Assembly: GCA_017539385.1 (NCBI GenBank)
Contig: JAFYHC010000083.1
Location: 1-34,438 of the forward strand
Direction: 5' to 3'
DNA length: 34,438 nucleotides
DNA from: Solobacterium sp.
GTDB taxonomy: Bacteria; Bacillota_I; Bacilli_A; Erysipelotrichales; Erysipelotrichaceae
Shown here: in pieces, positions 13,618-16,522 of the stretch
How the letters are laid out: each line of letters starts with the position of its first letter
Position numbering within the stretch: the first letter of the stretch is position 1
Notes under the pieces: generated by a model
What the model was told of the DNA's origin: nothing
The model's input: the letters and a program-made list of their open reading frames with translations, nothing else
The model's database searches: none
Made by a program: the position numbers and the translations under genes

Positions 13618-13626
13618 GCAATCTAG

Positions 13627-13655
13627 AGACTGCCTCTGACACGGGCAGTCTTTTT
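13627..13655 (+). terminator. Intrinsic terminator after the MATE gene
   Basis: AGACTGCC (13627-13634) pairs with GGCAGTCT (13644-13651) and is followed by Ts to 13655. It isolates the MATE gene from the next operon. Confidence 0.93.
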
Positions 13656-13677
13656 ACATGGTGCAGGAATTGTCCGC

Positions 13678-13683
13678 TATAAT
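13678..13683 (+). promoter_or_regulatory. -10 element of the ART-ABC operon
   Basis: A perfect TATAAT at 13678-13683 lies about 50 bp before the first gene and just after the MATE terminator. No good -35 is present at 16-18 bp (TACATG at 13655-13660 is poor), so the promoter may need an activator or be weak. Confidence 0.5.
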
Positions 13684-13734
13684 TGTAAAGACGCAGAAAG
13701 ACCAAAGCAGCTGTGCTGGAGGAGGGTTCACATC

Positions 13735-14505
13735 ATGATCGATCCGAAAGAAATACAGGCATTACGATGCTATGAAGGGGATGTGCAGAATACATCCGAT
13801 CCATTCTGGGGTGATGGCAAAATGTATGTGACATGGAATGCTATCCTGTTTGACGGAATGACGACCGAAGCAGCACGCTGTGCAGAGGGAAGAAGACTGA
13901 ATCCTGCCTTTCTGGTGGATGATGAACGCTTCCTGTCGCTGACCAGGCATCTGCTGTCTGCTTTGCACAGGATGCCAAAAGACGGTGTGCGCCATGCATA
14001 CCGGGTAGAGCGTCTGGCAGATTATGCTGTCATGAAAGCAAGCGGTATATTGCCGTCGTTTATTTCCACATCCACCGGCGGCTTTCTCGACAGCTATACC
14101 GATAAGAAACAGCTGGTATTGATGGAATTCGACATCATGCCGGAAACACTGTGGGGAGAGCTGGGGGTGCTTCTTCCTGCCTATGCAAAGGCAGAAGAAG
14201 CAGAGATCCTTATCGCACCCTATCAGTCCATAACCATGCAGGAAGAACCGCTTCCTGCGCAATACCGGAATATACATGATGCATGTGGTGAGTCGCCTGC
14301 GGTATACTGTAAAGTGCGTACCGGCACCTATCGTGCACAGTTATCTGCAGCAGAAGCAGACACATCCATAGAGGCAAATAAACGCGTCTATGAAGCGCTC
14401 AATGCACACCTTGTGCCGGAAGAAGACGATGTACGCAGCTATCTTGCATACAAAGCAAAGATGCATAACAGGATATACAGGATGATGGAGGAGTACAGCA
14501 GATGA
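13735..14505 (+). CDS. Putative ADP-ribosyltransferase-fold protein, first gene of an ABC operon
   Basis: The 256-residue protein has no signal peptide or membrane segment. Three motifs appear in the order and spacing of R-S-E class mono-ADP-ribosyltransferases. They are R90 in HAYRVERL, the STS motif in SFISTSTGG (S111-S113), and a final ExE in AEEAEILIAPYQS (E155, E157) followed by the usual hydrophobic strand. The N-terminal 85 residues, including the FWGDGKMYVTWNAILFDG segment, form a helical lead-in I do not recognise. I know of no characterised close relative, so the function is open. GGAGGAGGG at 13719-13727 precedes the ATG. The stop overlaps the next start as ATGA, tying its translation to the ABC transporter genes. 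Confidence 0.55.
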   Translation: MIDPKEIQALRCYEGDVQNTSDPFWGDGKMYVTWNAILFDGMTTEAARCAEGRRLNPAFLVDDERFLSLTRHLLSALHRMPKDGVRHAYRVERLADYAVMKASGILPSFISTSTGGFLDSYTDKKQLVLMEFDIMPETLWGELGVLLPAYAKAEEAEILIAPYQSITMQEEPLPAQYRNIHDACGESPAVYCKVRTGTYRAQLSAAEADTSIEANKRVYEALNAHLVPEEDDVRSYLAYKAKMHNRIYRMMEEYSR

Positions 14506-15272
14506 GTGAATATGTACTGGAAGCGAAAAAACTGACAAAGATCTACAATGCCAATACACCCAATGCATTTGAAGCCCTGCATGCGATCGATTTTCAGGTG
14601 AAGGAAGGGGAGTTCATCGGAATCATGGGACCGTCCGGTTCCGGTAAATCCACCTTTATAAACAACATCTCTACGATCGATACATATACCTCTGGCTTTG
14701 TATATATCAACGGAATTGAGACACGGCGCATGACAGCCAACCAGATGGGACGTTTCCGCTATGAGAATCTGGGATTTATCTTCCAGGACTTCAATCTGCT
14801 GGATACGCATACGCTGTATGAGAATATTGCCCTGCCATTGTCGCTTGCCCATGTGGACAAGGCGGTGATCGATCAGCGGGTAAAAGAACTGGCTGCACAG
14901 ATGAAGATCGATACTCTGCTGCACAAACGTCCCAATGAATGCTCAGGGGGACAGAGACAGCGTGCTGCCATTTGCCGTGCACTGGTCAACCATCCCCGCA
15001 TCATTGTGGCAGATGAACCGACCGGCAATCTGGACAGTGCCAATTCAGCAGAATTAATGAAGATCCTGCGGCGGCTGAATGAGGAGGAAGGCGTTACGAT
15101 CGTCATGGTCACCCACGATCCTTTGGTGACCTCCTATACATCCCGCTTCGTCTATCTCAAAGACGGATACATCGAAAGCGTCACAGAGCGCGGAAACATG
15201 ACACAGGAAGAATACTTCCATGCAATCGTGGAAGTGAATTCGGCGGAAAGCCGGGAAGTGCTGGCAGAATGA
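14502..15272 (+). CDS. BceA-like ABC transporter ATP-binding protein
   Basis: The 256-residue ATPase has Walker A GPSGSGKS (43-50), Q95, signature SGGQ (148-151), Walker B IIVADEP (167-173) with TGNLDSA as D-loop, and H205. The IMGPSGSGKS and NNISTIDTYTSG text is close to the BceA/VraD/YxdL family, which powers peptide-antibiotic resistance or sensing permeases. It starts with an ATGA overlap on the ART-like gene and ends with an ATGA overlap on the permease, a strictly coupled three-gene unit. No BceR/BceS two-component pair is adjacent. Confidence 0.9.
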   Translation: MSEYVLEAKKLTKIYNANTPNAFEALHAIDFQVKEGEFIGIMGPSGSGKSTFINNISTIDTYTSGFVYINGIETRRMTANQMGRFRYENLGFIFQDFNLLDTHTLYENIALPLSLAHVDKAVIDQRVKELAAQMKIDTLLHKRPNECSGGQRQRAAICRALVNHPRIIVADEPTGNLDSANSAELMKILRRLNEEEGVTIVMVTHDPLVTSYTSRFVYLKDGYIESVTERGNMTQEEYFHAIVEVNSAESREVLAE

Positions 15273-16522
15273 TCGTCCAGGATGCCCTGCGTTCACTGCG
15301 TCATTCCCTTTCGCAGGCAGTGTTCTACTGGCTGACGCTCTTGTTAACAACAACGTTTCTCTATCTGTATTTCATCCTGATGATGAGTGATCCGGTCACC
15401 GCCGGTTTCCTGACCGAAGGCACAGACTTTCTGGCAACTGCGGTCACTGTCACCGTGGTCATCATCTGTATGATCGCGATCCTCTATGCCAATAATTTCT
15501 TCGTACGGCGCAAGGCACCGGAACTGGCAGTCCGCCTGATCAGCGGCGCAACATATACCCAATTATCCATGTATCTGCTGTTACAGACATTGATCCTGAT
15601 GGCTGCAGCGATGCCGCTCGGCATTGTGATCGGCCGTCTGTTATTGCCGGTATTGTCCAATGCCGTATCCATGTATGCACAGGTGCCGTATACGATCGAA
15701 ATACGAAAAGACGGCATCGTAATGGCTTCGGTATTCCTTGGCTTTGTCGTCTTCTGGATCATCATGCTGAATCTGAGCTTTGCTTACCGCAATGCCGCAA
15801 ATATGCTCTTTCACAGTACTGCCCTCTATAAGCCGCAGAAAAGCGGTACACTCTATCTGCCGCTTCCGGCCATACTGCGCAAGACCGTATCAGCGATCCT
15901 GTTTCTTGGACCGATCGCATGGATGGCATTCAATCCGGCACCGGCATTCCTGTATGTGCTGATATCGTCCTTCGGCATGGTGATGTTCATCAAAGAAGCT
16001 GCTGTACCGTATCTCACAAAGCGGATCAATGGCAGTGATTCCATCAAGATGGCTTCTCTTGGCTTTCTGCGCAGGGACATCCAGGTGATCACCGTCAGTA
16101 CGATCCTGTATTTCACCGATGCAGTGCTGCTGTTATCTGCGATTACGCTCAAAGACGGACAGCCGGTGGAAATGGCCATGTACATGCTGTCGTATGTCAT
16201 TATGAATCTCATGCTTGCTCTGGCATTACTGTTCCAGTTTTCTTCGGAACTGTCGGCCCGCATTCGTCCCTTTGCGACATTATCGCAGATCGGCTGTACG
16301 CCGCGCCAGCAGAAACAGGCGCAAAACCGCGAACTATTGGCATTGTTTGGCATTTTGCTGGTGCTGGATCTGCTGTATACCGGTGCATTGCTTGTGCCGG
16401 CGATGATGCATGGACGCATCGAAGCATCCTTTGCACTCATTCTGTTTGCTTTAAGCGTTATTCCGTTACTTGCATGCGGTGCGTTCTGCCATGTGTATTA
16501 CCGCCGCTGTATCGCTGCCTGA
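15269..16522 (+). CDS. Short BceB/FtsX-like ABC permease lacking the extracellular domain
   Basis: The 417-residue membrane protein shows ten hydrophobic segments at about 18-39, 56-76, 101-126, 150-172, 206-222, 226-244, 274-294, 303-325, 355-376 and 387-410. Two FtsX-type repeats are visible (ELAVRLISGATYTQ at about 85-98 and TLSQIGCTPRQQ at 337-348). Known BceB proteins are about 650 residues and carry a roughly 200-residue extracellular sensor domain late in the chain. Here no loop exceeds about 35 residues. It pairs with the upstream ATPase through a 4-bp overlap. The substrate is unknown, and loss of the sensor domain argues against classical bacitracin sensing. Confidence 0.85.
   Translation: MIVQDALRSLRHSLSQAVFYWLTLLLTTTFLYLYFILMMSDPVTAGFLTEGTDFLATAVTVTVVIICMIAILYANNFFVRRKAPELAVRLISGATYTQLSMYLLLQTLILMAAAMPLGIVIGRLLLPVLSNAVSMYAQVPYTIEIRKDGIVMASVFLGFVVFWIIMLNLSFAYRNAANMLFHSTALYKPQKSGTLYLPLPAILRKTVSAILFLGPIAWMAFNPAPAFLYVLISSFGMVMFIKEAAVPYLTKRINGSDSIKMASLGFLRRDIQVITVSTILYFTDAVLLLSAITLKDGQPVEMAMYMLSYVIMNLMLALALLFQFSSELSARIRPFATLSQIGCTPRQQKQAQNRELLALFGILLVLDLLYTGALLVPAMMHGRIEASFALILFALSVIPLLACGAFCHVYYRRCIAA

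What the first reader, a model, noticed from the sequence alone, without database searches (positions are those of the whole stretch)
13735..16522. ADP-ribosyltransferase-like protein welded to a Bce-type ABC transporter
The first gene encodes a 256-residue cytoplasmic protein with R-S-E class ART motifs in order: R90, STS at 111-113 and E155-A-E157. Its stop overlaps the BceA-like ATPase start, and that gene overlaps the permease start, both as ATGA. Strict coupling suggests stoichiometric production of an NAD-using enzyme with a peptide-type ABC transporter. ART genes are mostly known as toxins, phage effectors or toxin-antitoxin parts; I know of no described ART-BceAB unit. Possible roles, all speculative, are modification of the transporter or of its substrate, or defence against a peptide antibiotic.
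Basis: partly seen in the sequence, partly recalled or inferred. Interest (0 to 1): 0.78.

Follow-up and report, generated by a model that had tools for sequence, protein, structure and literature searches.

The report
Roaming bacterial ADP-ribosyltransferase beside ABC transporter
A gut bacterium carries a real, unnamed enzyme of the ADP-ribosyltransferase type next to a transporter gene pair, but relatives of the enzyme usually sit next to quite different genes, so the apparent enzyme-transporter unit is mostly a local arrangement rather than a widespread new system.

Summary
The reading frames, motifs and ATGA overlaps are as described. The 256-residue protein is predicted with confidence to be an ADP-ribosyltransferase (ART): its model (pLDDT 92) matches VIP2, iota, C2-I and C3 ARTs (Z about 11-12), and R90, S111, E155 and E157 are invariant in 44 of 44 relatives. 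It is of the R-S-E type, has no signal peptide, and no Pfam or NCBIfam model recognises it. "Welded to BceAB" holds only locally. ART-ATPase-permease occurs in the window genome and one sister species; two further species have ART beside a permease of the same family at another locus. The other relatives lie beside tRNA synthetases, c-di-GMP enzymes, a sigma factor, glycosidases and others, and the ATPase-permease pair usually occurs without ART. Overlaps of 1 or 4 nt are ordinary here (15% of same-strand neighbours). The transporter is BceAB-like (ATPase closest to PsdA/BceA; permease with the 10-helix BceB fold) but lacks the large extracellular domain that marks BceAB, and no BceRS is adjacent. 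Most likely: a stand-alone cytosolic mono-ART of unknown target that happens to lead this operon. A functional ART-transporter link is possible (recurrence at two loci, rough p 0.04-0.06) but unproven.

The parts
13625..13653 (+). Hairpin of an intrinsic terminator (11 pairs, 7-base loop, followed by TTTTTA) that ends the upstream MATE gene and separates it from the ART operon
   Evidence: folding z-score -3.4; sequence. The consensus scan did not list it.
13678..13683 (+). TATAAT, possible -10 box of an ART-operon promoter; the -35 is poor (TTTACA at 13653-13658, 19-nt spacer)
   Evidence: sequence; not in the promoter scan, so weak
13718..13726 (+). GGAGGAGGG, ribosome-binding site of the ART gene
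   Evidence: sequence
13735..14505 (+). Stand-alone ADP-ribosyltransferase gene (256 aa): R90, S111-T-S, E155-A-E157; no signal peptide or membrane helix
14487..14493 (+). GGAGGAG inside the end of the ART gene, ribosome-binding site of the ATPase gene: the ATPase has its own translation start signal
   Evidence: sequence
14502..15272 (+). ABC ATPase (256 aa), closest solved relatives PsdA and BceA; overlaps the ART stop as ATGA
15269..16522 (+). ABC permease (417 aa) with the 10-helix BceB fold but only a 4-residue link between helices 7 and 8 in place of the extracellular domain; overlaps the ATPase stop as ATGA

Best explanation
The first gene encodes a cytosolic mono-ADP-ribosyltransferase of the R-S-E clade (Alt/VIP2-like). 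It most likely binds NAD+, with R90 and the STS strand holding NAD and E157 catalysing, and transfers ADP-ribose to an acceptor chosen by the E-x-E turn, most likely an arginine of a host protein. The acceptor is a general cytoplasmic target, not the transporter. The enzyme belongs to a fast-diverging single-gene family of gut Erysipelotrichaceae and Oscillospiraceae that has changed its chromosomal place many times. In this lineage it sits between a terminator and a BceAB-like transporter pair lacking the extracellular domain, so it is the first gene of their operon and the overlap reflects local operon capture. Shown: fold, invariant catalytic residues, selection, gene orders. Inferred: NAD use, arginine preference, independence from the transporter.
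For: ART fold: AlphaFold2 pLDDT 92.3, pTM 0.90; 69 PDB matches at E <= 0.001, the top 50 all ARTs; Z 12.0 to 10.7 over 137-161 residues to VIP2, iota-like, C2-I, C3, SpvB and ART toxin/immunity pairs. A relative at 36% identity hits PF03496 above the curated cut-off, 34 bits, E 2.3e-8. Catalytic R, S and ExE invariant in 44/44. In a weak profile alignment the ExE turn aligns with E163-x-E165 of phage T4 ModA. Neighbours not conserved: of 44 relatives, only 4 lie next to this transporter family. ART tree: the four transporter-linked rows form one group in 0% of bootstrap trees. Permease tree: at least two changes of the ART-linked label are forced by well-supported branches. Of 20 genomes of the genus with the permease, 10 have no ART, and 4 ART genomes have no permease. 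Overlaps are ordinary. ADP-ribosyl hydrolase and macrodomain genes are present in 28/32 and 27/32 carriers, so reversal is plausible, though never adjacent.
Against: ART lies directly upstream of a permease of the same family at two different loci, each kept in two species, one of them over deep divergence (ART 35%, permease 46% identity). By a rough count that has p about 0.04-0.06 given the window. Presence of ART and permease is weakly associated in the genus (Fisher p 0.049, not corrected for kinship). No target or activity was tested.
Confidence: 0.66

Rival explanations
1. ART and transporter form one functional module: the ART modifies the ATPase or a cytoplasmic partner and so switches a BceAB-like transporter that has lost its extracellular sensor domain and two-component system.
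For: Same operon with a terminator upstream of ART; the arrangement is kept between the window and G231 although the flanking insertions differ. Independent ART-permease adjacency in G103/G155, in G103 also with a 4-nt overlap. The permease lacks the sensor domain, which leaves room for another regulator.
Against: Most ARTs lack the transporter and most transporters lack ART. The order differs between the two loci (ART-ATPase-permease against ART-permease-ATPase-permease). The ATPase has its own ribosome-binding site. The ATPase is 92% conserved while the ART is 65%, not a sign of tight co-evolution.
Confidence: 0.18
2. The ART is an anti-phage or other conflict effector (abortive-infection type) carried as a stand-alone cassette.
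For: All 24 aligned members match the PADLOC model RTas1808, filed under DRT defence systems. Patchy distribution, fast divergence and changing location are typical of conflict genes. Compatible with the best explanation as its biological role.
Against: No reverse transcriptase in the window genome and none near any ART. Neighbours within two genes show only scattered PADLOC hits, no defence island. Several copies sit beside housekeeping genes.
Confidence: 0.3
3. Toxin of a toxin-antitoxin or toxin-immunity pair.
For: ART toxin/immunity pairs are among the structural neighbours (8za7, 6dre).
Against: No conserved small partner or ADP-ribosyl hydrolase next to the gene; no signal peptide or secretion domain.
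Confidence: 0.07

Closest known systems
R-S-E clade ARTs of the Alt/VIP2 type (VIP2, iota/C2-I/CDTa A components, SpvB, C3; phage T4 Alt/ModA)
   Same: ART fold over residues 1-200, R / S-T-S / E-x-E in order; PF03496 reached by some members
   Different: Stand-alone, cytosolic, with a C-terminal helical extension (about 212-255); sequence too distant for Pfam or NCBIfam to name the window protein; no delivery partner
PADLOC RTas1808 (DRT-associated protein)
   Same: All 24 members match over nearly the full length, best E 5e-41
   Different: No reverse transcriptase nearby or, in the window genome, anywhere; the model name records a neighbourhood, not a function
BceAB / PsdAB peptide-antibiotic transporters
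   Same: ATPase closest to PsdA and BceA; permease aligns over all 10 helices with BceB, Z 27.5, 390 residues
   Different: No 200-250 residue extracellular domain between helices 7 and 8; no adjacent BceRS

Membership tests
R-S-E clade ADP-ribosyltransferase | ART fold | tested here: met
   pLDDT 92.3; top 50 PDB matches all ARTs, Z up to 12.0
R-S-E clade ADP-ribosyltransferase | Conserved R, S-T-S and E-x-E in order | tested here: met
   R90, S111, E155, E157 in 44/44; T112 41/44; S113 38/44
R-S-E clade ADP-ribosyltransferase | NAD-dependent transferase or glycohydrolase activity | not testable with these tools
   needs an assay
BceAB-type transporter | BceA-like ATPase encoded next to the permease | tested here: met
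   PsdA E 7e-65, BceA E 2e-64; adjacent genes
BceAB-type transporter | 10-helix FtsX-type permease | tested here: met
   10 long helices; Z 27.5 to BceB
BceAB-type transporter | Extracellular domain of 200-250 residues between helices 7 and 8 (stated as the hallmark in PMC12484072) | tested here: not met
   helices 258-294 and 299-329 are joined by 4 residues
BceAB-type transporter | BceRS two-component genes in the operon (most cases) | tested here: not met
   none among the flanking window genes annotated
Conserved ART-ABC operon | Gene order kept across the ART family | tested here: not met
   4 of 44 relatives, two loci
DRT defence system | Reverse transcriptase in the locus | tested here: not met
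   no RVT_1 match in the window genome; none beside ART in the others
Toxin-antitoxin / toxin-immunity pair | Conserved adjacent antitoxin or immunity gene | tested here: not met
   no recurrent partner across loci; hydrolase and macrodomain genes not adjacent

The most novel reading that the evidence does not exclude
A BceAB-like transporter that has lost its extracellular sensor and its two-component system is instead controlled from inside the cell by an operon-encoded ADP-ribosyltransferase, a pairing that arose twice in one genus.
Probability: 0.14. Interest if true: 0.75.

Novelty: new member of a known kind. Interest (0 to 1): 0.36.

Why it matters
It identifies a stand-alone ART family, with an intact R-S-E active site, in rumen and gut Firmicutes; Pfam and NCBIfam do not name the window protein, and the only label (DRT-associated) is misleading here. 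Host-encoded cytosolic ARTs of unknown target are few, so its target would show what bacteria regulate or kill by ADP-ribosylation. Alongside it, a BceB-fold permease family without the extracellular domain asks how such a transporter recognises anything. If the two were functionally linked, ADP-ribosylation of an ABC transporter would be new; the gene-order evidence here argues that this is the less likely case.

Tried and rejected
Pfam, NCBIfam and PHROGs for the window protein: no hit; PDB by sequence or profile: only chance hits. Close homologues in genome, viral, plasmid and phage collections with the single protein: none, and none viral with the profile, so a phage origin has no support. 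Reverse transcriptase partner: rejected. Linked ADP-ribosyl hydrolase or macrodomain partner: rejected. Defence island: only scattered PADLOC hits, two of them on more than one neighbour. Profile comparison with phage ModA: aligns only the ExE turn and is too weak to count by itself. PF03496 search in the window genome: silent also in all controls, so uninformative. Promoter scan: nothing at the operon start. Literature: only one held paper has both 'ADP-ribosyltransferase' and 'BceAB', once each, in a review; the library is partial, so absence of a description is not shown.

Full report
Observation. The three frames and both ATGA junctions are exactly as reported. The window lies in a 2.7-Mb draft genome; named relatives are Solobacterium and other Erysipelotrichaceae metagenome assemblies, many from ruminant guts. 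A terminator hairpin at 13625-13653 ends the upstream MATE gene and a TATAAT at 13678 precedes the ART gene, so ART is probably the first gene of an operon with the ATPase and permease; the promoter is only a guess, because the consensus scan did not list it. The ATPase has its own GGAGGAG site inside the end of the ART gene.

What the first gene is. The window protein matches no model in Pfam, NCBIfam or PHROGs. Relatives were found in 24 other genomes of its family, then in 33 of 316 genomes at order level, all of the same family, and in Ruminococcus and other Oscillospiraceae assemblies plus one Alistipes assembly. In an alignment of 24 relatives Y13, G15, K29, Y31, T33, N35, R90, R93, F109, S111, K152, E155, E157, L159, D182 and K240 are among the invariant positions; in 44 relatives R90, S111, E155 and E157 remain invariant. 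The AlphaFold2 model has mean pLDDT 92.3 and pTM 0.90. All of the top 50 PDB matches are ARTs, and the structural alignment gives Z 12.0 to 10.7 with 2.6-3.5 A rmsd over 137-161 residues covering residues 1 to about 200. One relative hits PF03496 above its curated cut-off, four others below it. dN/dS of 0.17-0.25 shows a functional protein. There is no signal peptide or membrane helix. The E-x-E turn is the form found in arginine-specific ARTs; this is general knowledge of the family, not tested here. In the three-clade classification of ARTs (H-H-h, H-Y-[EDQ], R-S-E; PMC9503650) it belongs with R-S-E.

What the transporter is. The ATPase is closest to PsdA and BceA among solved structures. 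The permease model (pLDDT 80.7) has ten long helices and aligns with BceB over its whole length (Z 27.5, 390 residues); E. coli YbbP follows (Z 19). Helices 7 and 8 are joined by four residues, where BceAB transporters carry a 200-250 residue extracellular domain described as their hallmark (PMC12484072). No response regulator or histidine kinase is among the annotated neighbours. It is thus BceB-like in fold but does not meet the definition of BceAB. Related permeases occur in many genomes of the genus, often two or three per genome, normally as an ATPase-permease pair with the same 4-nt overlap and no ART.

Is the linkage conserved? Only in part. In the sister species G231 the order MATE-[transglutaminase-clostripain/LRR]-ART-ATPase-permease-patatin matches the window apart from two inserted genes. 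G155 has ART-permease-ATPase-permease, and G103 has ART-permease at a contig end; these two share further upstream genes and therefore one ancestral locus. All other ARTs have different neighbours: glutaminyl-tRNA synthetase, an alanyl-tRNA synthetase-like editing protein, GGDEF/EAL proteins, a glycosidase, a sigma-70 factor, a DNA alkylation protein, an amidohydrolase and others. On the ART tree the four transporter-linked members lie in one poorly resolved subclade of eight but form a group in 0% of bootstrap trees. On the permease tree the window and G231 permeases sit among permeases without ART (100/96), apart from those of G103 and G155, and well-supported branches force at least two changes. 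So the linkage arose at least twice, or arose once and was reshuffled. A rough count gives a chance of 0.04-0.06 for one further adjacency among about 26 other contexts. This is suggestive, not decisive, and it rests on assumed gene numbers. ART and permease presence is weakly associated in the genus (p 0.049, uncorrected for kinship).

Coupling. Of 318 same-strand neighbour pairs in these loci, 71 overlap by 1-29 nt and 47 by exactly 1 or 4 nt. An ATGA junction is therefore no argument for stoichiometric production.

Mechanism. The best-supported reading is a cytosolic mono-ART whose target is something other than the transporter. Carriers usually also encode ADP-ribosyl hydrolase and macrodomain proteins elsewhere, so a reversible modification is conceivable. 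The PADLOC match to RTas1808 in all 24 members and the patchy, mobile distribution hint at a conflict role, but no reverse transcriptase or defence island accompanies the gene.

Verdict. The ART is real and its family is little annotated. The ART-BceAB unit is a lineage-specific arrangement with slight evidence for function. Novelty: new member of a known kind.

Noticed in passing
window 15269-16522; L157-L174: Permeases with the BceB fold but without the extracellular domain, two or three per genome in this genus, usually paired with a BceA-like ATPase and without adjacent two-component genes noted: a possible distinct transporter subfamily.
   Followed up: partly
L026 5439-9806 (-): In the sister species a 1455-residue clostripain-family (Peptidase_C11) protein with BspA-type leucine-rich repeats, preceded by a transglutaminase-like protein, is inserted directly before ART and overlaps it by 1 nt.
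   Followed up: partly
L037 3094-5628 (-); L039 3539-6058 (+); L101 7733-10309 (+): A protein combining elongation-factor-G-like domains with a C-terminal YacP-like NYN nuclease domain (Pfam shown for L037; the other two are homologues) lies near ART in three genomes.
   Followed up: no
G228:C18:147245-148621, G187:C3, G291:C143, G293:C23, G142:C24, G229:C73, G235:C40: An ADP-ribosyl hydrolase gene and a macrodomain gene lie within about 2 kb of each other in several genomes, away from the ART gene.
   Followed up: no
PADLOC model PDLC03798 (RTas1808): This model matches the whole ART family although no reverse transcriptase is nearby, so DRT calls based on it in these bacteria would be doubtful.
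   Followed up: partly
L110 772-1677 (+): An ART of this family in an assembly labelled Alistipes (Bacteroidota) groups with Ruminococcus sequences: recent transfer or a misassigned contig.
   Followed up: no
L028, L029, L030, L037, L039 (genes directly upstream of ART): A small membrane protein of about 200 residues, in some with a GNAT acetyltransferase, is kept upstream of ART in the subclade that includes the window's ART but is missing in the window.
   Followed up: partly
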